IMG/VR virus record: IMGVR_UViG_3300045999_008713
Span: 1-29,045 of that record
Length of the DNA: 29,045 nucleotides
Direction: 5' to 3' (one strand)
Origin: a virus
In this document: piece after piece, positions 1,114 through 23,996 of the stretch
How the letters are laid out: each line of letters opens with the position of its first letter
Numbering within the stretch: position 1 is the stretch's first letter
The notes under the pieces: model-generated
Seen by the model: only the letters and a program-made list of their open reading frames with translations
What the model was told of the DNA's origin: nothing
Databases searched by the model: none
Program-made: the position numbers and the translations under genes

Positions 1114-1364
1114 CCGAACAAGTTGTCAGTGAGATTTGGGGCGAGCTAAAACGATATATCAACACAGTGGACCGTACTGAAGCAGCCGAAACAGTGGTAC
1201 AGATATTGATGGACAATGATTGTGACGCTGAACAGATCAAAGAAGCATTCAAAGGCGATCGCGATATCAAGACAGCCTTGACCAGTTATCTGGACAACGA
1301 CAAGGACTATGCCGAAGACGAAGAATCTGAAGAAGATTACAACGAAGACGAATGGGATGAGTAA
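1110..1364 (+). CDS. Small acidic conserved phage protein
   Basis: An 84-residue protein of unknown function. The N-terminal two thirds look helical, with an EIWGELKRYI segment and a spaced pattern DNDCDAEQIKEAF. The last 20 residues are almost all Asp, Glu, Tyr and Asn. I recall similar short proteins in T4-like cyanophages but can attach no activity. Its ATG overlaps the uvsX stop by 4 nt, and its own stop overlaps the next gene by 1 nt (TAATG), so translation is probably coupled to uvsX. The acidic tail could mimic DNA or contact a basic recombination protein; that is speculation. Confidence 0.75.
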   Translation: MTEQVVSEIWGELKRYINTVDRTEAAETVVQILMDNDCDAEQIKEAFKGDRDIKTALTSYLDNDKDYAEDEESEEDYNEDEWDE

Positions 1365-11467: not shown

Positions 11468-11497
11468 TTGACCAATGAGCAGATGGTGTAGTACAAT
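11468..11497 (+). promoter_or_regulatory. Sigma70 promoter, leaderless start for the GGCT-like gene
   Basis: -35 TTGACC at 11468-11473, an 18-nt spacer, then -10 TACAAT at 11492-11497. Six nt later is the ATG at 11504, so the expected +1 is the A of the start codon and no Shine-Dalgarno sequence is possible. It sits in the only gap after the glycan island. Confidence 0.72.
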
Positions 11498-11503
11498 GTT
11501 GCG

Positions 11504-11911
11504 ATGCTGTACTTTGCATATGGAATGAATACCAACCAATCTGGTATGACCCAGCGCTGTCCTGGCGCACTGAGTATGGGTGCAGCTCGATTGTTAAATC
11601 ACGGTTTTAGATTTGCCGTGCATGCTGACGTGGTACCCTGTGATGACAGTTGGGTAGACGGTGTGCTGTGGAGTATAGATCAGCATCACCTACACAGTCT
11701 TGACCGCCTAGAAGGCTATCCATGGTATTACGACCGCCGAGAACTGGCAGTACAACATCAGGGCCGCACTGTGATGGCTCACTGTTATATCATGCAGCCA
11801 GGTGTGGCCAATGCGCAGCCCACGCAACAGTATCTTGACACTGTGGTAGAAGGCTACAGACAACATGGCGTGCCCACTGATCAACTGTACAACTTTTTAT
11901 ATTCGTTGTAA
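11504..11911 (+). CDS. Gamma-glutamylcyclotransferase-like (AIG2/GGCT fold) protein
   Basis: A 135-residue protein of the GGCT/AIG2 superfamily. The start YFAYGMN (residues 3-9) is the family's substrate-binding YGxN loop. LDRLEGYPWYY places the expected catalytic acid at Glu70. VDGVLWSI (about 51-58) is the barrel strand before it. Family members cleave gamma-glutamyl amines, peptides or glutathione, or serve as maturation enzymes; the phage substrate is unknown. It is transcribed from its own sigma70 promoter and appears to be a single-gene unit between the glycan island and the next promoter. The predicted mRNA is leaderless. Confidence 0.85.
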   Translation: MLYFAYGMNTNQSGMTQRCPGALSMGAARLLNHGFRFAVHADVVPCDDSWVDGVLWSIDQHHLHSLDRLEGYPWYYDRRELAVQHQGRTVMAHCYIMQPGVANAQPTQQYLDTVVEGYRQHGVPTDQLYNFLYSL

Positions 11912-11924
11912 ATCTGCCACACGG

Positions 11925-11953
11925 TTGACTGTTAATTGTGGCGATGCTACAAT
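11925..11953 (+). promoter_or_regulatory. Sigma70 promoter, leaderless start for small membrane protein
   Basis: -35 TTGACT at 11925-11930, a 17-nt spacer, -10 TACAAT at 11948-11953, then 6 nt and ATG at 11960. The spacing is the same as at the other leaderless-type promoters in the window. Confidence 0.72.
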
Positions 11954-11959
11954 CACAGC

Positions 11960-12202
11960 ATGAAAGGAAAATTCAATATGAACTTGAAAGTCAAAGCTTT
12001 GTTGTTGACCCTGGGTGCCCTGGGTGGCAGTGTAGTGGCAGCCCTAGCCACTGTGGAAATTATAAAGATGATCAGTATTGATCTGCTGCCCTGGATGGGC
12101 GTAGGGTTTTTGATGATCATGGCCGTTTATGTTCTTTATAACATGATCTTGGGTCAGCTGCAAGACCAGGCCAAAATCCAGCAAATGATCGAAGAAAAAT
12201 AA
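11960..12202 (+). CDS. Small two-helix membrane protein
   Basis: An 80-residue protein from the ATG at 11960 (74 residues from the ATG at 11978). Two hydrophobic helices are visible: ALLLTLGALGGSVVAALATV near the N-terminus, and LLPWMGVGFLMIMAVYVLYN in the middle. A short charged amphipathic tail ends EEK. There is no recognisable family. The 11960 ATG is at the predicted +1 of its promoter, while 11978 has an AAAGGA ribosome site about 10 nt upstream, so either or both could be used. Likely an inner-membrane protein of the infected cell; function unknown. Confidence 0.6.
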   Translation: MKGKFNMNLKVKALLLTLGALGGSVVAALATVEIIKMISIDLLPWMGVGFLMIMAVYVLYNMILGQLQDQAKIQQMIEEK

Positions 12203-12232
12203 CAAAAACAGTGGCAAAAAGCCACACAAAAC

Positions 12233-12264
12233 GGCGGGTTAATTTGGTTGACCATTAATTCGCC
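12233..12264 (+). promoter_or_regulatory. Inverted repeat spanning the -35 of the AAA promoter (possible operator)
   Basis: GGCGGGTTAAT (12233-12243) and ATTAATTCGCC (12254-12264) pair over 11 positions with two G-T pairs, and the -35 hexamer lies in the 10-nt centre. A repressor dimer site or a leader hairpin of read-through transcript would both fit. A small GTGGC/GCCAC hairpin (12211-12225) lies just upstream without a T-run. Confidence 0.4.
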
Positions 12265-12276
12265 ATTTGCTATAAT
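12248..12276 (+). promoter_or_regulatory. Strong sigma70 promoter for the AAA+ ATPase unit
   Basis: TTGACC at 12248-12253, a 17-nt spacer and a perfect TATAAT at 12271-12276. Unlike the other sigma70 promoters here it leaves a leader of about 36 nt (predicted +1 near 12283) with a strong Shine-Dalgarno, TAAAGGAG at 12305-12312, six nt before the ATG at 12319. This is the best-equipped expression signal in the window. Confidence 0.85.
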
Positions 12277-12318
12277 AGATGCATAGTAAGAAACAACCGC
12301 ACACTAAAGGAGCCAACC

Positions 12319-13341
12319 ATGAGTGCAATTCGAGTCATCAACGGTAACTACCGCGGCACCCCTGTCATTGACACTGTGTTTGAACTGGTGTCAGGTTTTC
12401 AAACTGGTGCTCGTGGCGGCTATGTCACTGTCAAAAACAACGGCATCTTCCCTAAGTGCCCTGAAACGATCCGAGTGCGAGTTGAAGATATTTCGGATAT
12501 CGAGTACACTACCCCAATGACACAAGAAAACACTGTGAAATTTGAAAAGCCTGCGGCTGCGGCCGAAACTGATGAGCAGGCCATGGATCGTATCCGTGAG
12601 CGTTTTGAAATCCTGCAAGAAATGACCAAGGCCTGTGTCAGTGGTGACATTCGTGCCATGATTGTGTCGGGCCCTCCTGGCGTGGGCAAGAGCTACGGTG
12701 TCGAGCAAGAAATTGACAAGGCCTGTTTGTTTGACAAGCTGGCCAACAAACGACTTCGCGCTGAAGTTGTCAAAGGCTCAGCCACTCCCATCGGCCTGTA
12801 TCAAACTCTGTACAAATACAGTGACTCCAACTGTGTGGTTGTGTTCGACGACTGCGACAGCATCCTGCTGGATGACGTGGCACTGAACCTGCTGAAAGGC
12901 GCACTGGACTCAGGCAAGAAGCGCAAAATTTCTTGGTTGAGCGAGAGTTCCACTCTGCGTCGCGAAGGCATCCCAGATCAGTTTGAGTTCAAAGGTTCGG
13001 TGATTTTCATCACCAACTTGAAGTTCGACACCATGAAGAGCCAGAAGCTGCGCGATCACTTGGATGCACTGCAAAGCCGCTGCCACTACTTGGATCTGAC
13101 CTTGGACACCATGCGTGACAAGCTCTTGCGTATCCGGCAGATTGCCAAAGATGGCGTGCTGTTCGCAGACTATGATTTTGAGCCTGCTGTGCAAGACGAC
13201 ATCATTGACTTCATGAATGTCAACAAAGATCGTCTGCGTGAAGTCAGCCTGCGCATGGCACTGAAGATTGCGGATCTGCGCAAACTCAGTGTGATGAACT
13301 GGAAGCGCCTGGCCGAGACCACTTGCATAAAGGCAGCTTAA
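12319..13341 (+). CDS. AAA+ ATPase
   Basis: A 340-residue protein. Residues 1-about 70 form a beta-rich N-terminal domain (GARGGYVTVKNNG, IRVRVEDISD). The AAA+ core follows with Walker A GPPGVGKS (118-125) and Walker B VVVFDD (173-178), with sensor-1-like IFITN after GSVI. SRCHYLDL may include an arginine-finger or sensor-2-type residue. It does not look like gp44 clamp loader, lacking the usual N-terminal entry and Zn or C-terminal collar pattern; it resembles the ATPases of uncertain role found in many phages and plasmids. It is followed after 1 nt by a small membrane protein and then an intrinsic terminator. Its codon use looks richer in GC-ending codons than the radical SAM genes. Confidence 0.85.
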   Translation: MSAIRVINGNYRGTPVIDTVFELVSGFQTGARGGYVTVKNNGIFPKCPETIRVRVEDISDIEYTTPMTQENTVKFEKPAAAAETDEQAMDRIRERFEILQEMTKACVSGDIRAMIVSGPPGVGKSYGVEQEIDKACLFDKLANKRLRAEVVKGSATPIGLYQTLYKYSDSNCVVVFDDCDSILLDDVALNLLKGALDSGKKRKISWLSESSTLRREGIPDQFEFKGSVIFITNLKFDTMKSQKLRDHLDALQSRCHYLDLTLDTMRDKLLRIRQIAKDGVLFADYDFEPAVQDDIIDFMNVNKDRLREVSLRMALKIADLRKLSVMNWKRLAETTCIKAA

Positions 13342-13342
13342 A

Positions 13343-13558
13343 ATGGAAAAAATTGCAGTAATTGTTGGTGCAGTTGTGTTGGGTCTAGCAACGTTGGTAT
13401 TGATTAGTTTTTTGCTGAGCTGGCCTGTGTACATGTTGTGGAACGGGTGCTTGGTGGGTGCTGTGGCAGGTGTTAGTGAAGTCACCTGGTTGCAGGCCTG
13501 GGGCTTGACAATACTGTGTGGCTTTTTGTTCAAGACCACAGTCAACACAAAAGAATGA
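13343..13558 (+). CDS. Small membrane protein with two TM helices
   Basis: A 71-residue protein. Helix 1 is AVIVGAVVLGLATLVLISFL, then SWPVYMLWN. A second hydrophobic stretch LQAWGLTILCGFLF ends near residue 64. The pattern SWPVY-LWN...TWLQAWGL...CGxLFK is recurrent among small phage membrane proteins, but no function is known to me. It starts 1 nt after the AAA gene stop and shares its promoter, so it may be a membrane partner for that ATPase. The transcript ends at the terminator 55 nt downstream. Confidence 0.75.
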   Translation: MEKIAVIVGAVVLGLATLVLISFLLSWPVYMLWNGCLVGAVAGVSEVTWLQAWGLTILCGFLFKTTVNTKE

Positions 13559-13572
13559 GACTTTAAAGTTTT

Positions 13573-13605
13573 CCTGGGCATTCAAACGGTTGGCTCCGGC
13601 CCAGG
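13573..13605 (+). other. Stem-loop preceding the terminator
   Basis: CCTGGGC (13573-13579) pairs with GCCCAGG (13599-13605). Inside, CGG (13587-13589) pairs with CCG (13596-13598) directly beneath, with a 7-nt bulge. It could protect the 3' end of the transcript or be part of a small RNA with the terminator just after it. Structure seen, role unknown. Confidence 0.45.
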
Positions 13606-13612
13606 CTTTTGA

Positions 13613-13638
13613 CAGGCACTTTGGTGCCTGTTTTTTTA
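13613..13638 (+). terminator. Rho-independent terminator
   Basis: Perfect 7-bp stem CAGGCAC/GTGCCTG closing a TTTG loop, followed at once by seven T residues and a further T-rich stretch to about 13650. It ends the AAA/membrane-protein unit and isolates it from the radical SAM genes at 13676. Confidence 0.9.
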
Positions 13639-13675
13639 TTTGTTCTTTTTGGTGGTTGTCCCAGTTAAATAAAAC

Positions 13676-14800
13676 ATGCCTTTTTGTTACGCACCATGGA
13701 CCAACATTGATATCAGTCCGCAGGGCGAAATTTCTCCATGCTGTAAATTTCAAATGTCGGCGCATGACAGCAAGTTCAATGTTCAAACTCATTCTTTGAC
13801 TGAATATTTTGACAGTGATTTTCTTTCTTCGGTGAAAGAAGCCATGGAACAACACCATTGGCCCAAAGGATGTGAGCGTTGTAAAATAGAAGAACAGCAT
13901 AGCATACCCAGTAAACGGCTATTGGATCGTGAACGGTGGAGTCAACAGTATCAAGATTGGGATAAAAACAGCAACGGCTGCATTACCGCCAGCGTGGCCT
14001 TTGGTAATACTTGCAATCTCAAATGTATCACTTGCAGCAGTTACAGCAGCAGTAAATGGCACAAAGAATCCATGGCTATTGCCGGAGTTGCCCACAGCAC
14101 AGTCAAATTTTATCAGAAAGATTTTGTTGACCAACTGGTCACTCATGCTCCCAAGTTAATTCATCTTGACATCCCCGGCGGGGAGCCGCTGTTGTCTGGA
14201 GTGCCAGATCAGCACAGATTACTGCAACATTACATTGATTCTGGGCAAGCTCAAAACATGACGTTGCATTACACTACCAATGCCACAGTGTTTCCTGACC
14301 CACAATGGTGGCAACTTTGGCAGCATTTTGCCAAAGTTGAAATACAACTCAGCATAGATGGGTTGGACAAGCACTACCAATACATTAGATTTCCTGCATC
14401 GTGGTCTACTTTGCTGACCGTCATTGACCAGTATCTTGCAATGCCAAAATGCAATGTAAACCTTGCTGTGAGTCACACCGTCAGTGCCTACAATATTTTT
14501 TACTTGGATGAATTTGTCAGTTGGTGTTCCAAAACAGGTTTGCCCGAACCTTGGTTGGGAAGAGTTCACAATCCAGTACACATGAGGCCAACTGTTTGGC
14601 CCAGGTTGACACGCGAAAAAATTATTGCTAAACTACGCAATAGTTCATGGCCTTTCATGCAAGCATGGATATCGTTGTTGGAAACCAGCGATGATTCGCA
14701 ATGGTATTCATTGTTTTGCAGTAGAGTTAGAAAACATGATCAGTATCGATCACTGTGCTTTGAATCAGTATTTCCAGAAATGGCATCATGGATCCCTTGA
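13676..14800 (+). CDS. Twitch-type radical SAM protein, class B (copy 1)
   Basis: A 374-residue radical SAM protein. The SAM/[4Fe-4S] motif CNLKCITC gives Cys113, Cys117 and Cys120. IPGGEPLLSG is the GGE motif and IQLSIDGLDKHYQYIRF lies in the barrel. The N-terminus FCYAPWTNIDISPQGE followed by PCCKF, and KGCERC near 65-69, are the extra cysteines of the twitch group. Class B (FC...CC, about 373 aa) includes this protein and the one at 26261. It begins 38 nt after the terminator; an AT-rich TAAATA box ends 4 nt before its ATG, a possible late-type promoter one nt off the spacing seen elsewhere. Substrate unknown. Confidence 0.85.
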   Translation: MPFCYAPWTNIDISPQGEISPCCKFQMSAHDSKFNVQTHSLTEYFDSDFLSSVKEAMEQHHWPKGCERCKIEEQHSIPSKRLLDRERWSQQYQDWDKNSNGCITASVAFGNTCNLKCITCSSYSSSKWHKESMAIAGVAHSTVKFYQKDFVDQLVTHAPKLIHLDIPGGEPLLSGVPDQHRLLQHYIDSGQAQNMTLHYTTNATVFPDPQWWQLWQHFAKVEIQLSIDGLDKHYQYIRFPASWSTLLTVIDQYLAMPKCNVNLAVSHTVSAYNIFYLDEFVSWCSKTGLPEPWLGRVHNPVHMRPTVWPRLTREKIIAKLRNSSWPFMQAWISLLETSDDSQWYSLFCSRVRKHDQYRSLCFESVFPEMASWIP

Positions 14801-16092
14801 CAAGTCGGAAAACTCTTCCCATCATGGCCGAGTTAGAAACTCGTAGCCAGTTTTTTTGCCCGGCCAAATGGACCGAACTGTATCTATATCTCAATCACGG
14901 TACATCTAACAGTTGCCATCATCCCATTCCACATGTGATACCCAAGGAATCACTGTCTAATCCTGCTGCTTTACACAACACCGATCACAAGTTGACTCAG
15001 CAAAAAATGATGCTGGCTGGACAAAGACCGCCTGAGTGTCACATGTGTTGGCATATTGAGGATATGAATGACACTGTGGTCAGTGATCGAATTCACAAAA
15101 GTCAACAATGGCAAGACTATATTTCCACTCTGCAAATAGATGCAAACTTTGTACCCCCTTTCATAGAATTGGTTTTTGACAATTACTGCAATTTAGCATG
15201 CAGTTACTGCGATGCTGGCCAAAGCTCAACTTGGGCAGCCAAAATACATCAAAGGCCGTTGCACTTGGTTACTGATCACAGACAGTTATATAAAAAAATA
15301 CACATAGCACCTGGGAGTACCAAATCAGAATATTTTGATGCTTGGATGGTCTGGTGGCCCCAGGTCAAAAAACAAATCAAAGTGATCAAGATCAGCGGCG
15401 GCGAGCCGCTGATCAGTAAAAACTTTTGGCAGTTTGCCAAAAAATTTGAACCAAATGATGCGTACCGAGTAGATATCAACTCCAACCTTAGTGTTGATAC
15501 TGCCTTGATAGATCAATTTATTGATGCCACCAGCAATCTGCCCGCCGCTGGTATTGGTGCCAGCATTGATGCAGTGGGCGACCTGGCCCAGTATGTTAGG
15601 CAGGGGCTTGACTATGAACAATTTTTGATCAATGTGGATCGTTGGTGTAAAAGCAATCACACTCAAAATAAATTGTGGTTGCAGAGCACTATGAACATTC
15701 TTAGCATATGGGGTCTTGTTGACAAATTAAATCTTTGCCTAGAACTGCGAAAAAAATATCCCAGCAAAATGGGCACATTGTACACTACAATTGTACGGCA
15801 CCCTGAGTTTCAAAGTGTACTGCTATTGCCGTTGCCAATTAGACAGCAACTCCACAACCAGCTGTGTGATTGGTTAATTGCCAACCAACAACATCTCACG
15901 ACCAAAGAGCGTGACATGGTTGCCCGCACCAGTGCCTATCTAATTTCAAATCCAGATCATCTAAGAGGCTTTGATATACAACAGTTGACTCTTGACTTCA
16001 AGGCATTTTTGCAGTATTATGATCAAACAGCCAAGCAAAGTTACAAACAAATATACCCACACCAGTTCTGTGAATGGGTTGAATCTATATGA
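14788..16092 (+). CDS. Twitch-type radical SAM protein, class A (copy 2)
   Basis: A 434-residue radical SAM protein. CNLACSYC gives Cys134, Cys138 and Cys141, ISGGEPLISKNF is the GGE motif, and GIGASIDAVGD lies in the barrel. The N-terminus has FFCPAKWTE then TSNSCHH, and PPECHMCWHIED matches the SGGCEYC region of copy 1. The ATG at 14788 overlaps the previous gene by 13 nt; an ATG at 14824 (MAELE...) would give a 422-residue protein closer in length to copy 1 and is a good alternative. It is directly linked to a class B copy and overlaps uvsW by 4 nt (ATGA). Confidence 0.83.
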   Translation: MDPLTSRKTLPIMAELETRSQFFCPAKWTELYLYLNHGTSNSCHHPIPHVIPKESLSNPAALHNTDHKLTQQKMMLAGQRPPECHMCWHIEDMNDTVVSDRIHKSQQWQDYISTLQIDANFVPPFIELVFDNYCNLACSYCDAGQSSTWAAKIHQRPLHLVTDHRQLYKKIHIAPGSTKSEYFDAWMVWWPQVKKQIKVIKISGGEPLISKNFWQFAKKFEPNDAYRVDINSNLSVDTALIDQFIDATSNLPAAGIGASIDAVGDLAQYVRQGLDYEQFLINVDRWCKSNHTQNKLWLQSTMNILSIWGLVDKLNLCLELRKKYPSKMGTLYTTIVRHPEFQSVLLLPLPIRQQLHNQLCDWLIANQQHLTTKERDMVARTSAYLISNPDHLRGFDIQQLTLDFKAFLQYYDQTAKQSYKQIYPHQFCEWVESI

Positions 16093-17558
16093 AACAAGCT
16101 ACCATAGTCATACGTGACGAAGTCAATATCAAGATAGAAGGTCTGGATCTTGACATGCGCCGCAGACTGGTCACGGCGTTCAAATATGATGTACCATATG
16201 CTCGCTACTTGCCGGCAGTGCGACTGGGTCGATGGGATGGCAAGGTCAGTTACTTTCAACTGGGTGGATCTACATATACCAACCTGCTGCCTGAAATATT
16301 GCCCTTGCTGGAGCAATACAATTGGGATGTTGAACTAGACGATCAACGTGATTACTCAGTCACATTTGACTTTGAATTGGTAGAAGAAAATCGCTGGGCA
16401 TACAAAACATGGCCCAAAGGACATCCTGCCGCTGGTGAACCTATTATGTTGCGGGACTATCAGGTAGAAATTGTCAACAACTTCTTGCAGAATCCTCAGT
16501 GCATACAAGAAGTGGCCACAGGTGCAGGTAAGACCATAATGACTGCTACCATGAGTGCCTGTGTAGAGCCGTATGGCAGATCAATTGTGATTGTACCCAA
16601 CAAGAGTCTGGTGACACAGACAGAAAAAGACTATCGCAATGTGGGGCTGGATGTGGGCGTTTACTTTGGTGACCGCAAAGAACACGGACATCAGCACACC
16701 ATCTGCACCTGGCAAAGTCTAAATGTTCTGTTGAAGAACACCAAAGCAGGCGTAGGCGAAGCCACCATACAGGACTTCATTGAAGATGTGGTCTGTGTGA
16801 TTGTGGACGAGGTGCACATGGCCAAGGCTGATGCACTGAAAACCTTGCTCACAGGTGTCATGGCCAGAGTGCCAATTCGCTGGGGTTTGACCGGCACCAT
16901 ACCCAAAGAAAAATTTGAAAGCCAGTCCTTGCTGGTTAGTTTGGGTCCTGTGATTGGCAAGTTGAGTGCCAACGAACTGCAACAGCAAGGAGTGTTAGCT
17001 CAGTGCCATGTGAACATTGTGCAACTACAGGATCATGTTGAATACGCCAACTATCAGAGTGAGCTTAAATATCTGCTGGAAGAGTCAGGGCGTCTAGATG
17101 CCATGGCCGAGCTCATAGAGCATGTGAATCAAACTGGCAATACCTTGGTGCTGGTGGATCGTGTGGCAGCAGGCACAGCACTGGTGTCACGACTAGGCGA
17201 CCGTGCTGTGTTTGTATCCGGCGCAACCAAGGCCAAAGATAGACAGGACGAATATGATGAGGTGGCAGAGGCAACAGATAAAATCATTGTGGCCACATAT
17301 GGCGTGGCCGCAGTGGGTATCAACATCCCCCGTATTTTCAATCTTGTGCTTGTTGAACCCGGCAAGAGTTTTGTGCGAGTCATACAAAGCATTGGGCGGG
17401 GAATCCGCAAAGCCGAAGACAAAGACCACGTGCAAATCTGGGACATAACCAGTACCTGCAAATTTGCTCGAAGGCATTTGACCAAACGCAAGGCCTACTA
17501 TCGTGAGGCCAACTATCCTTTTAGTCAGGAAAAATTAGAATGGATGATTCAAAAATAA
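16089..17558 (+). CDS. uvsW: UvsW-like superfamily 2 DNA/RNA helicase
   Basis: A 489-residue helicase (T4 UvsW is about 500 aa). In T4 it unwinds R-loops and branched DNA and moves forks, switching replication from origin-driven to recombination-driven. Seen here: an N-terminal beta domain (to about 110) with LGRWDGKVSYF; Q-like element LRDYQ; motif I ATGAGKT (143-149); motif II DEVH (240-243); motif III-like GLTGT; and motif VI QSIGRGIRKAED. The start overlaps the radical SAM stop and the last 19 nt overlap the next gene. The DEVH box, N-terminal domain and neighbourhood support UvsW over a host helicase. Confidence 0.93.
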   Translation: MKQATIVIRDEVNIKIEGLDLDMRRRLVTAFKYDVPYARYLPAVRLGRWDGKVSYFQLGGSTYTNLLPEILPLLEQYNWDVELDDQRDYSVTFDFELVEENRWAYKTWPKGHPAAGEPIMLRDYQVEIVNNFLQNPQCIQEVATGAGKTIMTATMSACVEPYGRSIVIVPNKSLVTQTEKDYRNVGLDVGVYFGDRKEHGHQHTICTWQSLNVLLKNTKAGVGEATIQDFIEDVVCVIVDEVHMAKADALKTLLTGVMARVPIRWGLTGTIPKEKFESQSLLVSLGPVIGKLSANELQQQGVLAQCHVNIVQLQDHVEYANYQSELKYLLEESGRLDAMAELIEHVNQTGNTLVLVDRVAAGTALVSRLGDRAVFVSGATKAKDRQDEYDEVAEATDKIIVATYGVAAVGINIPRIFNLVLVEPGKSFVRVIQSIGRGIRKAEDKDHVQIWDITSTCKFARRHLTKRKAYYREANYPFSQEKLEWMIQK

Positions 17559-18247
17559 AAATTGCTGTGTGTGGCGATAGTTTCTGTGCAGCCAGCAATG
17601 TCGATCTGGCCAAAACTGGTACAGGTCCTCGAGCTCACTTCAGTCACATACTGGAAGATCAGTATGGATACGAAGTGTTACATTTGGCGCACGGTGGTTT
17701 CAGCAACACTGGTATCATGTTTCAAATTCAACATGCAGTGCAATCCAACGTTGATGCAGTGGTCTACAACAAAACTTGGGCCAATAGAGTTGAAATCGTG
17801 CTCAGAGATAATCGTTTTCGTCCTGAAGCAGGCCTTAAAAATTTTGTTTACTTTGACTTAGGCATGCCATCAACTGGACAACCTTTTGTTGGTGACAAAA
17901 ACTCGCCAATTTTTTCCACGGTCTGGCAAGGCCTGGAAGAAAATACCCTGTTGAAACACAGAGAAGAACAGTTGTTGGCCGTGAATTTATATCTCAAACA
18001 TCTGTTCGATTACAATTTACAAAACACTATCGACACATGGTTATTTGAATACTGGTATCGGATCATGTTAGATAACCAAATATTGCCGCTGTGTTTTAAC
18101 GATGCAGATGTAGGCAAAGTGGCTTATGACTTTTCAGAAAAAGATCGCAACTATGACACACCGTTTCACACTGATCGAGCCACTCAAGAAACTGTGGCCG
18201 CCAACATACATGTCAAAATTCAAAAACATCTTGACAGTTTGAAATAA
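17540..18247 (+). CDS. SGNH/GDSL-like hydrolase-fold protein
   Basis: A 235-residue protein. CGDSFCA near the N-terminus (Ser14) matches block I of SGNH hydrolases, HGGFSNTG is a plausible glycine block, and DTPFHTD near the C-terminus (Asp206, His210) is a candidate Asp/His pair, although the usual spacing is DxxH, not DxxxH. These enzymes de-esterify sugars or lipids; in a phage with a glycan island, acetyl-sugar or cell-envelope deacylation would be natural, but this is inference. The start overlaps uvsW by 19 nt. A sigma70 -35 box lies in its last codons, so the next gene is transcribed separately as well. Confidence 0.6.
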   Translation: MDDSKIKIAVCGDSFCAASNVDLAKTGTGPRAHFSHILEDQYGYEVLHLAHGGFSNTGIMFQIQHAVQSNVDAVVYNKTWANRVEIVLRDNRFRPEAGLKNFVYFDLGMPSTGQPFVGDKNSPIFSTVWQGLEENTLLKHREEQLLAVNLYLKHLFDYNLQNTIDTWLFEYWYRIMLDNQILPLCFNDADVGKVAYDFSEKDRNYDTPFHTDRATQETVAANIHVKIQKHLDSLK

Positions 18248-18259
18248 ACCATCTATACT
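18231..18259 (+). promoter_or_regulatory. Consensus sigma70 promoter, leaderless start
   Basis: -35 TTGACA (perfect consensus) at 18231-18236 inside the end of the previous gene, a 17-nt spacer, -10 TATACT at 18254-18259, then exactly 6 nt to the ATG at 18266. Confidence 0.8.
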
Positions 18260-18265
18260 TGCACT

Positions 18266-18766
18266 ATGAGAATATTGACATTAGACAACACTCACTATGA
18301 TCTAGATCATTTGCCCGAAGAAATCGACGATTTACGATTTGCCATACTAGACAACAGCAATCCAGCAGATCCAGATTATCATTTTATTCCTTTGATTTTT
18401 TTAGAAAGCTTTAACGCACCTGCCCTGGTACTGCGAATAGGCACCACTACCATAAAAATGCCCATGGATTGGCAAGTGCTGATTGGCGAACCCGACGTTG
18501 GTGACTTAGAAGTGTTGCCCTTGACATCCATCAATGATCGTGGATTTCGAGTTTTTCAATTCAATCCATTGACCAGTTATCGCCCCAGCTTTCCTGACAT
18601 TGAAATTTTAGATGTGTATCATGAAGTGTCGTGGTATGCGCCCAAGCTGAAAAATGGACAGATGCTGGCTGTGCCCATCAACAATGATCCAGAACCAGAC
18701 TGTGTGTATTTTGTCAAAGATGTCAGCCGCAACTGTGAGATTGTCAACTACAATAAAGCCTGGTAA
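18266..18766 (+). CDS. Conserved phage protein of unknown function (166 aa)
   Basis: A soluble, slightly acidic 166-residue protein with no recognised fold. Distinct stretches are LPEEIDDLRFAILDNSNPAD, HFIPLIFLESFNAP, MPMDWQVLIGEP, EVLPLTSINDRGF and CVYFVKDVSRNCE. I recall closely similar proteins in T4-like cyanophages near replication genes but can assign no activity. It begins six nt after a -10 box with a perfect -35 upstream, so it is probably expressed early and leaderlessly. The stop overlaps the next small gene by 1 nt (TAATG), so the next gene is translationally coupled. Confidence 0.8.
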   Translation: MRILTLDNTHYDLDHLPEEIDDLRFAILDNSNPADPDYHFIPLIFLESFNAPALVLRIGTTTIKMPMDWQVLIGEPDVGDLEVLPLTSINDRGFRVFQFNPLTSYRPSFPDIEILDVYHEVSWYAPKLKNGQMLAVPINNDPEPDCVYFVKDVSRNCEIVNYNKAW

Positions 18767-18909
18767 TGTATACTGAACCACAAGTTTTTGAAATGATCAA
18801 TCGACTGGTGCGTATCTATCTAGAAAGCTATCCCGATGATCAGGATGGACTAGAAAGATTTTTGCGTTGGGCCCACAGTCAGTATGGATATAGCTATGGG
18901 CAGTCTTAA
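18766..18909 (+). CDS. Short 47-aa protein, translationally coupled
   Basis: An open frame of 47 codons starting at the ATG that overlaps the preceding stop (TAATG), ending with TAA at 18909. The product MYTEPQVFEMINRLVRIYLE continues into an amphipathic, aromatic-rich tail (RFLRWAHSQYGYSYG). It fills what would be a 117-nt gap in an otherwise gapless operon, and overlaps the following gene by 26 nt in another frame. Charged/hydrophobic alternation suggests a folded helical miniprotein. Function unknown; supported by position and coupling only. Confidence 0.55.
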   Translation: MYTEPQVFEMINRLVRIYLESYPDDQDGLERFLRWAHSQYGYSYGQS

Positions 18910-19144
18910 ACCAGGTGCCACATACATTTACGAACGTGCCAATGGTCGTATCTATGCCAGAGAGTTTGGATCCACCCAGAGACAAATTGTGGGTTATGAC
19001 AGTCAAGTGCAAGAGACCAGAGAGCGCAGATACTACATGAACCATATCAACCATGTGCTGTTGATGTGCGAATCAGATCCGGCCATGCGCGAGTTGCTGG
19101 AACAACTGTTTGTGCTGTATAATCTAAAGAAAACTCATGAGTGA
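18884..19144 (+). CDS. Small conserved phage protein (86 aa)
   Basis: A protein of 86 residues from 18884, or 82 from the alternative ATG at 18896 (MGSLKPGATYIYER). The central TYIYERANGRIYAREFG and RQIVGYDSQ look like a small beta sheet, followed by a helix-rich tail ending LLEQLFVLYNLKKTHE. Similar short proteins beginning LKPxxxYIYER occur in T4-like phages; no function is known to me. It overlaps the 47-aa gene and the next gene by 8 nt, making a chain of coupled genes from 18266 to 20260. Confidence 0.7.
   Translation: MDIAMGSLKPGATYIYERANGRIYAREFGSTQRQIVGYDSQVQETRERRYYMNHINHVLLMCESDPAMRELLEQLFVLYNLKKTHE
19094..19123 (+). promoter_or_regulatory. Possible internal sigma70 promoter
   Basis: TTGCTG at 19094-19099, an 18-nt spacer and a perfect TATAAT at 19118-19123, all inside the preceding coding frame, with the ATG at 19137 13 nt beyond. 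The -35 is only partly consensus and the site could be coincidental. Confidence 0.35.
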
Positions 19145-19589
19145 TCAACTGAACATTGGGAACGAAATGCGTATGTTTGATCGCAAGGTCAGAACATTCT
19201 ACGACGATCTTACCGAAGAAGAACGCAAAAAATTCAGCCCCTATCTCATGATAAGGTGGGGTTCGTCGGTGGAAGGCAGTAGGGACTTGCAAGAGTTTTA
19301 TGTGATTGCCACCAACCAGCTATTGAACAAACACTTCTTTGATATCAACACTGCTCGACACAAAAAACTACAGTGGTTGCTGGCAACCACTGTGAGTCCG
19401 GATATGGGCACTCACCGCCATACTTGGATCGCCACAAAGAAAAAAGAAAATGCATCAGGTGAAAAACGCAAAGCACTGCAACAACTGTTCCCTCATTACA
19501 AAGATGATGAAATTGAAGTCATGATGAACATTGTGACTCAAAAAGAAATCAATGAGTATAGAAAAAATCTTGGCGAAGATGTCAAATGA
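19137..19589 (+). CDS. 62: gp62-like sliding-clamp-loader small subunit (probable)
   Basis: A 150-residue protein. An N-terminal helical part (MFDRKVRTFYDDLTEEERKK) leads into SPYLMIRWGSS, DLQEFYVIATNQLLNKHFF, KKLQWLLATTVSPD, THRHTWIATKKK, a Lys-rich helix and a C-terminal LFPHYKDDEIEVMM. This order resembles the gp62 subunits of T4-like phages, where an S/D-rich entry is followed by YANxxN, a KLQYDFLxNxxR helix, K/R-F-x-KW and a closing Y-x-x-S/K-x-x-A series. gp62 joins gp44 to load clamp gp45. The alignment is by eye; no gp44 or gp45 lies in the window. Confidence 0.6.
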   Translation: MSDQLNIGNEMRMFDRKVRTFYDDLTEEERKKFSPYLMIRWGSSVEGSRDLQEFYVIATNQLLNKHFFDINTARHKKLQWLLATTVSPDMGTHRHTWIATKKKENASGEKRKALQQLFPHYKDDEIEVMMNIVTQKEINEYRKNLGEDVK

Positions 19590-20260
19590 ACCATCAGTGT
19601 CAGTACTGCAAAAAAACATTCGTCAAAGAAACGTCAATTGCAGTTCACATGTGCGAGCCCAAACGTCGACGGCAAGAGCGCAGTGAACGCGGTGTAGAAC
19701 TGGGATTTAGGGCTTACATTAGATTCTATGAGATTACTCAAGGGTCGGCTCGACTCAAAACATTTGACGACTTTGCTGACTCTGCATACTATCGTGCATT
19801 TGTGAAATTTGGAAGATACTGTGTGGATACCAGGGTGATCAATCCACAACAGTTTCTTGAATGGTTGTTGAAACACAACAAAAAAATTGATCATTGGGCG
19901 TCAGATCAAATCTACACTGAATATCTGCTGACCTACTTGCCATTGGAAAATGTAGCTGACGCCTTGGCACGTGGCGTAGAATTCAGCATGGACTGGGCGG
20001 AAAAACACAGTGCTCAATCACATCATTGTTTGAGATATGGTAGTGTTCCTGCACTGTGCTATGCTATCACAGCAGGCCGCATCTCGCCCTGGATCATTTA
20101 TAACTGTGAATCGGGACAGCAATTTTTAAACTCATTGACATCTGACCAAGTTGCAATGATTTGGTCTTACATAGACAGTGATGTGTGGCAAAAGAAGTTT
20201 GCAGACTATCCTGCAGATCAGGCCTACGCACAGGAAATTTTGACCAAGGCAGGTTGGTAA
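19586..20260 (+). CDS. Zinc-finger phage protein (C2HC type)
   Basis: A 224-residue protein. The N-terminus CQYCKKTF...VHMC places Cys5, Cys8, His21 and Cys23 as a small zinc site, followed by a very basic stretch EPKRRRQERSER, then a long helical domain (LKTFDDFADSAYYRAFVKFG, FLEWLLKHNKKIDHW, YLLTYLPLENVADALARG). Such a finger plus basic linker suggests nucleic acid binding. I recognise it as a repeated hypothetical in T4-like phages, not as a named protein. It overlaps the gp62-like gene by 4 nt, in the position where T4 has regA, but it does not look like RegA. Confidence 0.7.
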   Translation: MNHQCQYCKKTFVKETSIAVHMCEPKRRRQERSERGVELGFRAYIRFYEITQGSARLKTFDDFADSAYYRAFVKFGRYCVDTRVINPQQFLEWLLKHNKKIDHWASDQIYTEYLLTYLPLENVADALARGVEFSMDWAEKHSAQSHHCLRYGSVPALCYAITAGRISPWIIYNCESGQQFLNSLTSDQVAMIWSYIDSDVWQKKFADYPADQAYAQEILTKAGW

Positions 20261-20261
20261 C

Positions 20262-20630
20262 ATGATGACCATTGCACTGTTGACGCTGGTGTTTTTGAAC
20301 ATTAAGCATTGGTATGTGGATTTTGTAGATCAAGATCCGCAAGAGATTGCTCACAAAGGCCAGTATGGACATTGGTTGGGCATCCGACACAGTGTCAAAC
20401 ATGGTATTGGCACAGCAGTAGCTGTGGCTCTGACCTTGGGCCCAGACATGTGGTTGGTCAGTGTGATGTTGGGCATGTTTGAAAGTGTGATTCACTATCA
20501 CATTGACTGGGCCAAAATGAACTGGGGACAGCGTGATACCCGCCACCCCAGTTTCTGGGCTCATCTTGGATTGGACCAGATGGCACACCATTTGACTTAC
20601 GTGGGCATCGTTGCTATAATTGTGCTATGA
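20262..20630 (+). CDS. DUF3307-like membrane protein
   Basis: A 122-residue protein. Hydrophobic helices are at the start (IALLTLVFLNI), in the middle (GIGTAVAVALTLGPDMWLVSVMLG) and at the end (YVGIVAIIVL). HWYVDFVDQ, KGQYGHWLGIRHSVKHG, HYHIDWAKMNWGQRD and LGLDQMAHHL are the His/Asp signature of DUF3307 membrane proteins, where pairs of HxxxD-like motifs line the membrane face. The biochemical role is not known. The ATG at 20262 (a second at 20265) follows the upstream stop by 1 nt. The -35 of the next promoter is inside its last codons. Confidence 0.75.
   Translation: MMTIALLTLVFLNIKHWYVDFVDQDPQEIAHKGQYGHWLGIRHSVKHGIGTAVAVALTLGPDMWLVSVMLGMFESVIHYHIDWAKMNWGQRDTRHPSFWAHLGLDQMAHHLTYVGIVAIIVL
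20592..20620 (+). promoter_or_regulatory. Sigma70 promoter, leaderless start
   Basis: -35 TTGACT at 20592-20597, a 17-nt spacer, perfect -10 TATAAT at 20615-20620, then 6 nt (TGTGCT) and ATG at 20627. It lies wholly in the end of the preceding coding sequence. Confidence 0.8.
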
Positions 20631-20992
20631 TCAAATCTATTTTGCAATCAGGAAGGTATCTCACAGTGACTGGCAACGGTACCTATCCTTACATCAGCAA
20701 TAACGGCAACAGTCTGGGCACAGGCAATATGCGATTCAACACTCAAACTCAAAACGTCGAAGTCTATGATGGTAACCAATGGATCACGTGTAGCACTGGT
20801 TCTGTGTCAGTGGGTCTCAACGGCGCTGCTGAGTCGCTGTTGGACTGGGCTCGCATCAAGCGAGATGAAGAATCACGCATTGTGGCCTTGGCTGCCAAGC
20901 ATCCCACAGTGGCCGATGCTCTTGATGCAGTAAAGAAAGCACAAGAACAATTACAAATAGCAACCATACTGTGTGAGACCAATGAGCGCTGA
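20627..20992 (+). CDS. Conserved protein with virion-like N-domain and helical tail
   Basis: A 121-residue protein. The N-terminal half (GRYLTVTGNGTYPYIS, GTGNMRFNTQTQNVEVYDGNQW) is the beta-rich MRFNxxTQNxEVYDGxxW element common in phage fibre and neck-type proteins. After about residue 65 is a charged helical tail (LLDWARIKRDEESRIVALAA, ADALDAVKKAQEQLQIATIL), probably a coiled coil. It may be a small structural or morphogenesis protein, or may simply reuse the module. It has its own sigma70 promoter, odd for a late structural gene. It overlaps the next gene by 11 nt. Confidence 0.6.
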   Translation: MIKSILQSGRYLTVTGNGTYPYISNNGNSLGTGNMRFNTQTQNVEVYDGNQWITCSTGSVSVGLNGAAESLLDWARIKRDEESRIVALAAKHPTVADALDAVKKAQEQLQIATILCETNER

Positions 20993-21551
20993 CATTGACA
21001 TTGATGTACCCAACAGAGATGCTGTGTTACAACTCATACAGCATGTGCCAGCACGTCTTGGCAACGGACGCAGGCACAATTCTGGCGTGTATGTCACTGA
21101 AATTCCCAGAGACATTGTGAATGGCTGTGCAGCCATAGATCATGAAGCAGCTGAAGCCAGGGGCTACTTCAAGATTGACTTGCTGAATATGACTGTGTAT
21201 CAGTTGATACGTGATCCTGCGCACTATGATCAACTGCTGGCACAGGAGCCTGTTTGGTCAAGACTGTGGCTGGATCCTGAGTGGGCCCGGCAGCTGGTGC
21301 ACGTTGGAAACTATACTGATTTGTTGGCCATAATGAAGCCAGATTCAATTCCCAGAATGGCTGCTTTTATATCTATTATTCGCCCAGGCAAGGCACATTT
21401 ACAACGCAAACCCTGGGCCGAAGTTTTTGCATCAGTGTGGGATGGCAATGACACTAGAGGTTACACGTTCAAAAAGTCACATGCTGTGAGCTATGCTGCT
21501 CTGGTAGCGCTGCACATGAACTTAATCCATGCGCCTGACCAAGGTAATTGA
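20982..21551 (+). CDS. Miniature DnaE/PolC-like polymerase core protein
   Basis: A 189-residue protein related to bacterial DNA polymerase III alpha. ADIDIDVPNRD (residues 3-13) corresponds to the PDIDxDF catalytic motif, HNSGV (32-36) to the HAAGV element, GYFKIDLLNM (61-70) to the KFDFLGL third-aspartate motif, IIRPGK (132-137) to the RPGP motif, and YTFKKSHAVSYAAL (161-174) to the FNKSHA segment. All three catalytic Asp positions are kept, yet E. coli DnaE is about 1160 residues and spaces D403 and D555 some 150 apart; here it is 58-60. It lacks PHP, the GSAAGSLV motif, beta-binding and OB parts. The ATG at 20982 is chosen over the in-frame GTG at 20973. It could be a regulator, a decoy, or a minimal nucleotidyltransferase. 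Confidence 0.75.
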   Translation: MSADIDIDVPNRDAVLQLIQHVPARLGNGRRHNSGVYVTEIPRDIVNGCAAIDHEAAEARGYFKIDLLNMTVYQLIRDPAHYDQLLAQEPVWSRLWLDPEWARQLVHVGNYTDLLAIMKPDSIPRMAAFISIIRPGKAHLQRKPWAEVFASVWDGNDTRGYTFKKSHAVSYAALVALHMNLIHAPDQGN

Positions 21552-21899
21552 TTTTCTTTTGCTTTTTTTCTTGGCAATGTCCTGCAGGCTGCACACTGGG
21601 CCGTGCAAAATTTCCAAATCTTTGTTGCTGAACGTTCGCAGGGTAAATCTAAATCTATCCCAATCGCTGCGCAAAAAAATGTTGATGGGTATAGATCTGT
21701 TGCTTTCCCACCACCATTGACTGGCCAGTTCTAAAAACAATACTTTTTCTTGTTGGTCTATCACAGAACCAAAATCATAGATTGTGGTCACAGTGTCATC
21801 TTTGTTTTGGATCACCCCTACATATTCAGCGTTGGCATAGCTGCACAATGTAATAAAGGGATATTTTTCAGCCAGTTTATCAAAGATTGTATTGCCCAT
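21522..21899 (-). CDS. Conserved antisense-oriented phage protein (125 aa)
   Basis: A 125-residue soluble protein of unknown function on the minus strand among plus genes. Recognisable stretches are IYDFGSVIDQQEKVLFLELA, WWWESNRSIPINIFL, GPVCSLQDIAKKKSKRK and a final SITLVRR. I recall this combination (WWWESNR, GPV, basic linker, LVR) as a recurrent conserved protein in T4-like phages without assigned role. It overlaps the end of the mini-DnaE gene by 30 nt tail to tail. Its start faces the virion-protein promoter. No strong promoter of its own was found; TTGAGT, 17 nt, AACAAT on the minus strand is weak. Confidence 0.65.
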   Translation of the reverse strand: MGNTIFDKLAEKYPFITLCSYANAEYVGVIQNKDDTVTTIYDFGSVIDQQEKVLFLELASQWWWESNRSIPINIFLRSDWDRFRFTLRTFSNKDLEILHGPVCSLQDIAKKKSKRKSITLVRRMD

Positions 21900-21904
21900 A
21901 AATA
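21897..21904 (+). promoter_or_regulatory. T4-late-like promoter CATAAATA before virion protein
   Basis: CATAAATA differs from the T4 late octamer TATAAATA at one base. The predicted +1 is about 21910, giving a 13-nt leader to the ATG at 21923. It precedes the only clearly virion-like gene in the window, as expected for a late promoter. Confidence 0.6.
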
Positions 21905-21922
21905 TTGTTATTCGAGAATCCT

Positions 21923-22996
21923 ATGTACTCAACTACCGTTTACTTATACCAACAGATAACCAAAGTTTTGTTAGTTGACACCAGCGGTGGGTATTTTCAA
22001 GCGAGGTATGATCCAGTGTATGCAAAATCTCTAACCATCAACAAAGGTGTAGACAACGTACTGTTGTTTGAATTTATAAATCAAGAACAAAAGCCAGTGA
22101 ACATCACTGGATCCACTTTTGTGTTTAGACTGATGAATCAAACTGGTGATAAACTGTTGTTGGAAAAACCCATGACCAGTCTAAGCAATGCATTGGGCAG
22201 AGTAAAAGTAGTGTTGGATACCAATGACACCATTAATTTGGTAGCACAACCAGCCAGCTATTCTATTCAGCGAACATCTGGAGACTATGTTCAGGCTGTG
22301 TACGTGGATGCCAACAGTCAGGCTCGAGCTGACGCCAATGTGGTGGACAGTGTTTTGCCACAGTTTATACCCAGCAAAGCCTTGACCATTCCTACCATCT
22401 ACGGTAAAGCACAGCAGATTGTGCCTGGGCCCACCAATTGGCCTGATTGGGCATTGTATCCTCAACCTGTGAACACCACACAGTTGACTGAATTTTACAG
22501 CAGTTTTATTGATACTTCACAACAGAGTCTTACCACAGTCAAAATGGACCTAGACCATTTCACCGGCACTGTTAAATTTCAAGCAGCACAAGACTATGAA
22601 TCTGTATGGTACAACGTCACACCCAGCTATGATTTTCTTGATGAAACCAGCTCACAGTACTTCAACATAGAAGGTTTTCATCCTCTAATTAGAGCAGCTT
22701 TCAACAACAGTCAAGGGTTCGGTGCACAGGCCACAGCTCAAGTCAGCGAAGACGGTGTGGTCACTGGTATTTCAATTACCAATTCTGGGCAGGGGTATGT
22801 GGCCGCACCCAAAGTTCAAATCCTGGGCAATGGTAGTGGTGCCGAAGCTGTGGCCACTATTGGTGCTGATGGCAGTGTGTCAACCATTACATTGACCAAT
22901 GGCGGATCAGGCTATTTGCCAATTCAATATCAAGGCACACAACAAGCCACTGTTTTGATAACCACAGGTACAATCACCAACCTCCAATATCGTTGA
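21923..22996 (+). CDS. Virion/baseplate-type structural protein with BppU-like N-domain and C-terminal repeats
   Basis: A 357-residue protein. Residues about 30-100 (SLTINKGVDNVLLFEFINQE, ITGSTFVFRL, LEKP) resemble the phage baseplate-upper-protein (BppU) immunoglobulin-like N-domain. The middle is beta-rich with WPDWALYPQPVN. From about residue 267 to 345 are two related units ending in NSGQGYVAAP and NGGSGYLPIQ, each with ATAxVxxDGxV and ITN/LTN, typical of fibre and adhesin stalks. No signal peptide or enzyme motif is seen. The ATG at 21923 is preferred to the in-frame TTG at 21905. It follows a T4-late-like promoter; a primase promoter overlaps its last codons. Confidence 0.7.
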   Translation: MYSTTVYLYQQITKVLLVDTSGGYFQARYDPVYAKSLTINKGVDNVLLFEFINQEQKPVNITGSTFVFRLMNQTGDKLLLEKPMTSLSNALGRVKVVLDTNDTINLVAQPASYSIQRTSGDYVQAVYVDANSQARADANVVDSVLPQFIPSKALTIPTIYGKAQQIVPGPTNWPDWALYPQPVNTTQLTEFYSSFIDTSQQSLTTVKMDLDHFTGTVKFQAAQDYESVWYNVTPSYDFLDETSSQYFNIEGFHPLIRAAFNNSQGFGAQATAQVSEDGVVTGISITNSGQGYVAAPKVQILGNGSGAEAVATIGADGSVSTITLTNGGSGYLPIQYQGTQQATVLITTGTITNLQYR

Positions 22997-23021
22997 TCTG
23001 CTGTGGACGATATTGTATAAT
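22993..23021 (+). promoter_or_regulatory. Sigma70 promoter, leaderless start for primase
   Basis: -35 TTGATC at 22993-22998 overlapping the upstream stop, a 17-nt spacer, perfect -10 TATAAT at 23016-23021, then 6 nt to the ATG at 23028. It separates the late structural gene from the replication genes. Confidence 0.78.
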
Positions 23022-23027
23022 AGCTAG

Positions 23028-23996
23028 ATGCTTGACATCCTGACGTATCTGCCAGCCCGACGCAAACAGACTCCGTCAGGCTGGATCAGTTTTAATTGCC
23101 CGGTTTGTGACGATCGACGCACACGAGGTGGCCTTAAACCCAGTGACACTGGCTGGAGCTACCATTGTTTTAACTGTTCCACCACTGCTAGTTTTGTTCT
23201 GGGTCGAGGTCTAGGCCATCGAGCTAGAAAACTGTTGTCAGCACTGCATGTGCCTGAGCAAGAAATTGACCTGCTGAATCTTGAAAGCATGCGGCACCGC
23301 AGTGTGCACGGTATCTTGGACGAACGTGCCAAGCTGGCCAACCAACTCAGTGCCATTGAGTTTGAAGAAATGGATGACTTTCCTCCAGGCAGCGAAGTAA
23401 TCACTCCTGAACTGGTCAAGTATTGGCAGTATTTGAGAGACCGAGGCGTGCCTGAAGACTTTCCGGCCATGACTACCATACGCACTGATGGCGTTCACTG
23501 GGTGCGTGAACATATCACCATACCGTTTACCTACGATGGTCGTGTGGTGGGATGGACTGCTAGAATGCTGGATCGACGTGCACCCAAGTTCATCAGTCAC
23601 GCACAGCCTGGCTATGTGTTTGGCATTGATTTACAACCCAACAACTGGCAACATGTGTTGGTCATGGAAGGCATCTTTGATGCCCTCAGCACCGGTGGCG
23701 TGGCCGTGATGCATAACACCATTTCAGATGCACAGGCCAGGCTGATACGCACCTTGGATCGTGAGATCACTGTGGTCCCAGATCAAGACAAATCTGGTAT
23801 TGAATTAATTGATCGTGCTGTGGAACTGGGCTGGGCAGTGAGCATACCCAACTGGCCTGACTGCAAAGATCCCAACGATGCTGTGCGAAAGTATGGACGC
23901 TTGGCAACACTGCTAACTATTATGCAGGCACGTGAAACCAGCCGTGTCAAAATTGAATTGAGAAAGAAGCAGTTGCAAAAGCAATGGAAACAGTAA
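23028..23996 (+). CDS. 61: gp61-type DNA primase
   Basis: A 322-residue primase (T4 gp61 is about 340). It makes the RNA primers for lagging-strand synthesis together with the gp41 helicase. The zinc ribbon is CPVC (24-27) and CFNC (47-50). After a linker the TOPRIM core shows VLVMEGIFDAL (Glu), VVPDQDKSG (the DxD pair) and NWPDCKDPNDAV. A Lys/Arg-rich tail ends at 322. It has its own sigma70 promoter and probably a leaderless start, and overlaps the following gene by 13 nt. Confidence 0.9.
   Translation: MLDILTYLPARRKQTPSGWISFNCPVCDDRRTRGGLKPSDTGWSYHCFNCSTTASFVLGRGLGHRARKLLSALHVPEQEIDLLNLESMRHRSVHGILDERAKLANQLSAIEFEEMDDFPPGSEVITPELVKYWQYLRDRGVPEDFPAMTTIRTDGVHWVREHITIPFTYDGRVVGWTARMLDRRAPKFISHAQPGYVFGIDLQPNNWQHVLVMEGIFDALSTGGVAVMHNTISDAQARLIRTLDREITVVPDQDKSGIELIDRAVELGWAVSIPNWPDCKDPNDAVRKYGRLATLLTIMQARETSRVKIELRKKQLQKQWKQ

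What the first reader, a model, noticed from the sequence alone, without database searches (positions are those of the whole stretch)
11468..23030. Five sigma70 promoters place +1 exactly on the start codon (leaderless early genes)
At 11504, 11960, 18266, 20627 and 23028 the ATG begins exactly 6 nt after the last base of a -10 hexamer (TACAAT, TACAAT, TATACT, TATAAT, TATAAT), with a -35 (TTGACC, TTGACT, TTGACA, TTGACT, TTGATC) at 17 nt (18 nt at 11468). Under normal sigma70 geometry (+1 about 7 nt past the -10) the A of the ATG is the first transcribed base. Five out of five identical -10-to-ATG distances is unlikely by chance. The sixth sigma70 promoter (12248) differs, with a leader and a strong Shine-Dalgarno. 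This points to a deliberate leaderless class, perhaps for early expression independent of ribosome-binding-site recognition.
Basis: partly seen in the sequence, partly recalled or inferred. Interest (0 to 1): 0.82.

Follow-up and report, generated by a model that had tools for sequence, protein, structure and literature searches.

The report
Leaderless gene class in giant phages
In a group of uncultured giant phages, bacterial-type promoters sit so close to many genes that the first transcribed base should be the A of the AUG start codon; the exact spacing recurs across dozens of gene families and even predicts a second, shortened version of one ATPase.

Summary
The five sites are real: -35 and -10 boxes 17-18 nt apart, then exactly 6 nt to an ATG opening an 80-322 aa ORF. 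Markov-simulated windows give 0.1 such sites. The pattern is clade-wide: among 1,111 distinct sigma70-like sites in related uncultured jumbo-phage DNA, 177 have ATG at +6, against 1-23 at the other offsets from +2 to +11; GTG at +6 occurs 0 times. It covers 38 ORF clusters, 18 in two or more contigs. None of 38 such starts in four large contigs has a Shine-Dalgarno motif, against 68-86% of leadered ones. Homologues keep -35/-10 while the spacer drifts. Leaderless mRNAs are the best reading; "early" and "independent of ribosome-binding sites" are untested. Extra finding: 33 AAA-ATPase homologues share an in-frame internal ATG (window 12517), 28 with a strong +6 promoter inside the gene (codon-usage null 4.6, maximum 13); homologues without that ATG mostly lack the promoter. 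The ATG lies at a predicted domain boundary, implying a truncated isoform. T4, RaK2 and PA5oct show no +6 excess; unrelated viral contigs show a weaker one. No transcript 5' ends were available.

The parts
11468..11497 (+). sigma70-like promoter (TTGACC, 18 nt, TACAAT), 6 nt before ATG 11504
11504..11911 (+). gamma-glutamylcyclotransferase-like gene (GGACT / phrog_2520), predicted leaderless
   Evidence: 5 of 10 homologues keep N6, one N7
11925..11953 (+). sigma70-like promoter (TTGACT, 17 nt, TACAAT), 6 nt before ATG 11960
11960..12202 (+). 80-aa ORF, no family match, predicted leaderless
   Evidence: 3 of 3 close homologues N6
12248..12276 (+). leadered promoter of the phage cassette type (TTGACC, 17 nt, TATAAT)
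   Evidence: cassette consensus
12306..12312 (+). Shine-Dalgarno AAAGGAG of the AAA gene
12319..13341 (+). AAA ATPase (phrog_1250), full-length form with N-terminal beta domain
12482..12510 (+). intragenic promoter (TTGAAG, 17 nt, TACACT; 8/12 here, 10-11/12 in most relatives)
12517..13341 (+). predicted N-terminally truncated AAA form starting at internal M67
   Evidence: 28 of 33 homologues with this ATG have a strong N6 promoter; linker position
18231..18259 (+). sigma70-like promoter (TTGACA, 17 nt, TATACT), 6 nt before ATG 18266; -35 overlaps the end of the preceding ORF
18266..18766 (+). phrog_11279 gene, predicted leaderless
   Evidence: 44 of 60 homologues N6, 14 more at N5 or N7-N9
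20592..20620 (+). sigma70-like promoter (TTGACT, 17 nt, TATAAT), 6 nt before ATG 20627, inside the 3' end of the preceding ORF
20627..20992 (+). 121-aa ORF, predicted leaderless; start overlaps the preceding stop
   Evidence: 7 of 33 homologues N6
22993..23021 (+). sigma70-like promoter (TTGATC, 17 nt, TATAAT), 6 nt before ATG 23028
23028..23996 (+). DNA primase gene (phrog_47, Toprim), predicted leaderless
   Evidence: 36 of 40 nonredundant homologues N6 at 8/12 or more

Best explanation
These are host-type (sigma70) promoters positioned so that transcription starts on the A of the ATG, giving leaderless mRNAs without Shine-Dalgarno sequences that are translated from a 5'-terminal AUG. The phage group uses two forms of such promoters. 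One is leadered, with a conserved spacer, C|ATA at the expected +1 and a GGAG leader. The other is leaderless, with ATG at +1, sometimes embedded in the 3' end of the preceding gene, so that a gene in a tight array can be expressed alone as well as by read-through. In the AAA ATPase gene an intragenic copy is predicted to make a second, N-terminally truncated protein. Shown by sequence: geometry, conservation, lack of SD, ATG-only. Inferred: the actual +1, initiation at the 5'-terminal AUG, timing, and the existence of the short AAA protein.
For: N6-ATG excess in relatives: 177 of 1,111 sites against 1-23 at neighbouring offsets, GTG 0 at N6, 17-nt spacer in 169 of 177. 10, 8, 10 and 11 N6 sites in G001, G002, G003 and G005 against 0.3-0.9 per other offset. 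38 ORF clusters, 18 seen in two or more contigs. SD motif 0 of 38 at N6 starts, 68-86% at leadered starts. Base at -1: C 46, T 28, A 9, G 0 at leaderless sites; C 119, T 46, A 33 at the same position of leadered promoters. phrog_11279: 42 of 44 nonredundant homologues have a promoter 5-9 nt before the ATG, 30 at exactly 6; among N6 members -35 1.33 and -10 1.45 bits against 0.48 in the spacer. AAA internal start: 28 of 33 against a null of 4.6 (maximum 13 in 2,000); Val codon GTT at the -35 in 26 of 33 with the ATG, 2 of 31 without; M67 in a low-confidence linker between domains.
Against: No 5' ends were mapped; +1 could lie 1-2 nt off, and 12 of 44 nonredundant phrog_11279 homologues use spacings 5 or 7-9. 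The primase family usually has G at -1 (25 of 36), a poor initiator context. Gene starts are inferred. Homologues are not independent, and most loci came from the AAA and primase neighbourhoods. A few N6 ATGs sit 24 nt before an in-frame SD-led ATG and may be cassette variants. The AAA model is only moderately confident (mean pLDDT 64), and the window's own internal promoter is weak (8/12).
Confidence: 0.85

Rival explanations
1. The transcripts carry a very short leader of 1-3 nt rather than none; RNA polymerase picks a purine slightly upstream and the N6 spacing is only the commonest of several tolerated spacings.
For: phrog_11279 homologues use N7-N9 in 11 of 44 nonredundant cases; the helicase family has 7 at N6 and 6 at N7; primase sites mostly have G at -1.
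Against: Overall the mode at exactly 6 is sharp (177 against 23 and 12 at the neighbours), and the pyrimidine at -1 fits a start on the A.
Confidence: 0.1
2. Chance or compositional bias: AT-rich phage DNA produces -10-like boxes near ATGs.
For: Promoter-like matches are only modestly commoner than in shuffles (45 against 33.9).
Against: Markov windows give 0.115 N6 sites against 5; every other offset serves as a control; homologues keep the boxes while the spacer drifts.
Confidence: 0.01
3. The ATG belongs to the promoter's initially transcribed sequence (the leadered cassette has ATA there) and is not used as a start codon; translation uses another start or read-through mRNA.
For: The leadered cassette has ATA at +1 to +3 in 106 of 198 copies; a few N6 ATGs precede an SD-led ATG by 23-24 nt.
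Against: N6 ATGs open long ORFs (150 of 153 are 30 codons or more) and match the N-terminus of homologues such as GGCT, phrog_11279 and primase; most have no SD-led start nearby.
Confidence: 0.04

Closest known systems
Lambda cI mRNA from PRM, and leaderless genes of phage P2 and Tn1721
   Same: [quoted passage not shown] Lambda, P2 and Tn1721 are named as E. coli leaderless examples in PMC4633059; the similar -10 to ATG spacing at PRM is from own knowledge.
   Different: Those are isolated cases; here there are 8-11 sites per large contig and 38 ORF clusters across a jumbo-phage group.
Leaderless genes of mycobacteria (PMC4633059) and TA-led genes of Zheng et al. 2011 (PMC3160421)
   Same: Promoter element just upstream of the start codon, no SD, start at +1; conserved between species.
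   Different: Mycobacteria use ATG or GTG at +1; here ATG 177, GTG 0. Here it is a viral property next to a larger leadered promoter set.
E. coli mRNAs with a 5'-terminal AUG plus an SD-led start (5'-uAUG, PMC4965119)
   Same: Five cassette promoters here have ATG at +1 and an SD-led ATG 23-24 nt downstream, four of them in frame.
   Different: Only a small minority of the sites; most N6 starts have no SD-led ATG nearby.
T4-type early promoters with leaders and SD
   Same: Strong sigma70 promoters in many copies with an extended conserved sequence (the leadered cassette); T4 early-promoter features from own knowledge.
   Different: T4 has no N6-ATG sites at this threshold.

Membership tests
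Leaderless mRNA genes | Promoter placed so that the expected +1 coincides with the start codon | tested here: met
   Sharp N6 mode by sequence; not measured as RNA
Leaderless mRNA genes | No Shine-Dalgarno sequence | tested here: met
   0 of 38 N6 starts against 68-86% of leadered starts; none of the five window sites
Leaderless mRNA genes | Transcript 5' end mapped at the start codon | not testable with these tools
   No transcriptome of these uncultured phages available here
Leaderless mRNA genes | Translation initiates at the 5'-terminal AUG | not testable with these tools
   Needs reporters, ribosome profiling or proteomics
Mycobacteria-type leaderless genes | ATG or GTG both used at +1 | tested here: not met
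   ATG 177, GTG 0, TTG 4 at N6
Sigma70-type promoters | TTGACA / about 17 nt / TATAAT | tested here: met
   169 of 177 N6 sites have the 17-nt spacer
Early gene class | Transcribed before phage protein synthesis | not testable with these tools
   No time course; several of the genes are replication or repair genes

The most novel reading that the evidence does not exclude
Leaderless promoters form a mobile regulatory layer in these phages: they appear and vanish in front of orthologous genes, they can be written inside coding sequence by synonymous choice, and in the AAA ATPase they make a conserved truncated isoform. Phage-encoded bS21 and initiator-type tRNA might favour their translation, though neither is specific to phages with the N6 excess.
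Probability: 0.35. Interest if true: 0.8.

Novelty: new variant of a known kind. Interest (0 to 1): 0.62.

Why it matters
If true, AUG-first transcription is a regular expression mode in a group of giant phages and not only a rarity known from lambda cI. It would help to fix gene starts, offers a natural panel of leaderless promoters with matched leadered relatives, and exposes isoforms hidden inside genes. A weaker excess at the same spacing in unrelated viral contigs (18 sites at N6 against 0-7 at every other offset below 20) suggests the mode reaches beyond this group.

Tried and rejected
Chance: rejected by Markov simulations and by all other offsets as controls. T4-like late promoter TATAAATA: 3-8 copies on the main strand per large contig and no clear ATG spacing, so not pursued. 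bS21 as the cause: encoded in 10 of 13 relatives but also in PA5oct, SCTP-2, Atu_ph07 and Phosso, and PA5oct has no N6 excess; not specific. Initiator-type tRNA-Met (C1-A72) in three of four large contigs: also in PA5oct, with U1-A72 forms in Phosso and CBB; not specific. IF3: not found in six relatives, present in Phosso, Atu_ph07 and RaK2. Host from bS21: the genome scan gave only weak scattered matches, best 45-47% identity, so the host is unknown. Selection against out-of-frame 5' AUGs: five dual cases only, too few. The single-sequence AAA fold was poor (pLDDT 39) and was replaced by one on a 22-sequence alignment. No Rfam family matches the window.

Full report
Observation. They are the only strong sites in the window (10/12 or more) with an ATG 4-9 nt after the -10 and an ORF of 40 aa or more. 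Markov sequences of the same composition give 0.115 N6 sites on average, maximum 2 in 200. None of the five has a Shine-Dalgarno 4-mer in the 20 nt upstream; the leadered promoter at 12248 has AAAGGAG before ATG 12319.

Identity. The window is a 29-kb IMG/VR virus fragment with UvsX, a UvsW-like helicase, primase, a DnaB-type helicase and a DNA polymerase piece. Its nearest annotated relatives by the helicase region and by phrog_11279 are jumbo phages such as Atu_ph07, Phosso, PA5oct and CBB. 160 related loci were fetched with the AAA and primase proteins, and four of the largest contigs (215-349 kb) were read in full.

Clade-wide test. With sites of 10/12 or more, both strands, exact duplicates removed, ATG at offset 6 is found 153 times in 708 sites; other offsets up to 25 have 1-26, and a separate leadered hump peaks with 43 at offset 30. 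With the whole contigs added: 177 of 1,111; neighbours 23 (N5), 12 (N7), 10 (N8); GTG 0 and TTG 4 at N6; spacer 17 in 169 of 177. Because loci were chosen by two genes, the whole contigs are the fairer sample: 10, 8, 10 and 11 N6 sites in G001, G002, G003 and G005, against 0.38, 0.92, 0.31 and 0.62 per other offset. The N6 ORFs fall into 38 clusters, 18 present in two or more contigs. Identified ones include primase, GGCT, a UvdE endonuclease, an exonuclease and a GIY-YIG-like protein.

Two promoter forms. Leadered sites share a cassette consensus gTTGACCAAtAATTCCCAATTTGCTATAATA.a.aCATA followed by a purine-rich leader with GGAG; 106 of 198 have ATA at +1 to +3 and 5 have ATG. Pooled leaderless sites share the boxes but have a much weaker spacer consensus. 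At the expected -1, pyrimidines make up 74 of 83 leaderless and 165 of 198 leadered sites, which fits a common +1. SD motifs: 0 of 38 against 68-86%.

Conservation per gene. phrog_11279: 44 of 60 homologues at N6, 14 more at N5 or N7-N9, 2 without; nonredundant 30 of 44 at N6. Primase: 52 of 81 at 9/12 or more; 36 of 40 nonredundant at 8/12 or more. Others are patchy: 18 of 48 (19586 family, whose window member has none), 7 of 33 (20627 family), 5 of 10 GGCT, and for the helicase 7 of 62 at N6 and 6 at N7. So such promoters come and go per gene. Box information exceeds spacer information in phrog_11279 and primase; in the 19586 family, where the promoter lies in the preceding coding region, the spacer is nearly as conserved. 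The profiled members were chosen for having an N6 promoter, which inflates the box values; the offset counts are not affected by that choice.

Intragenic start. In 33 nonredundant AAA homologues an in-frame ATG stands at the position of window 12517. 28 have an N6 promoter of 10/12 or more; resampling codons by family usage gives 4.6 on average, maximum 13 in 2,000. In 31 homologues without the ATG, 2 reach 10/12. The window itself has a weak version (8/12). Shared ancestry within each group is not corrected for. A model from 22 sequences shows a confident N-terminal beta domain (about residues 1-63), a low-confidence linker and then the AAA domain (mean pLDDT 64); M67 is in the linker. A truncated AAA product is therefore predicted, not shown.

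Controls. N6 sites with an ORF of 40 aa or more: T4 0, RaK2 1, PA5oct 0, SCTP-2 4 (background 1.23 per offset) in 400 kb, Phosso 3. Viral contigs fetched by an unrelated spacing (N9), with relatives of the window removed, show 18 at N6 from 16 contigs and 0-7 at every other offset below 20. The second background set, fetched by N6 and with its own hits removed, shows only 6 at N6 and 6 at N7. So the mode exists outside this group, more weakly and unevenly.

Literature. Leaderless genes are described as few in E. coli and mostly of mobile origin, including lambda and P2 (PMC4633059), and as more than 20% of genes in Actinobacteria and Deinococcus-Thermus (PMC3160421). The AR9 jumbo-phage paper reports leaders of 26-491 nt and remarks that phage transcripts are often leaderless (PMC5312081). 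The ten paper searches made here returned no genome-scale study of leaderless genes in phages; most subscription papers are not held, so this is not proof of absence.

Limits. No RNA data; related sequences are not independent; the host is unknown; gene starts are inferred.

Noticed in passing
window 20985-21551 (+) and 27376-28929 (-): Two ORFs on opposite strands both match DNA polymerase families (phrog_11778; phrog_405), so the polymerase looks split.
   Followed up: no
G001, G002, G003 (related contigs): 24, 33 and 38 tRNAs, including an initiator-type tRNA-Met with C1-A72 in each; G001 and G005 also carry a tmRNA.
   Followed up: partly
10 of 13 related contigs: Ribosomal protein bS21 gene; four of eight annotated comparison phages also have it.
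   Followed up: partly
G001, G002, G003, G005: Dispersed leadered promoter cassette with conserved spacer and GGAG leader in many copies, mostly ATA at +1 to +3.
   Followed up: partly
L014, L018, G001:1824, G005 reverse strand 103373: Cassette promoters with ATG at +1 and an in-frame SD-led ATG 24 nt downstream, possible dual starts.
   Followed up: no
window 1364-2617, 13676-14800, 14788-16092, 26261-27379: Several ORFs with clustered cysteines that resemble radical SAM proteins by eye; not searched against families.
   Followed up: no
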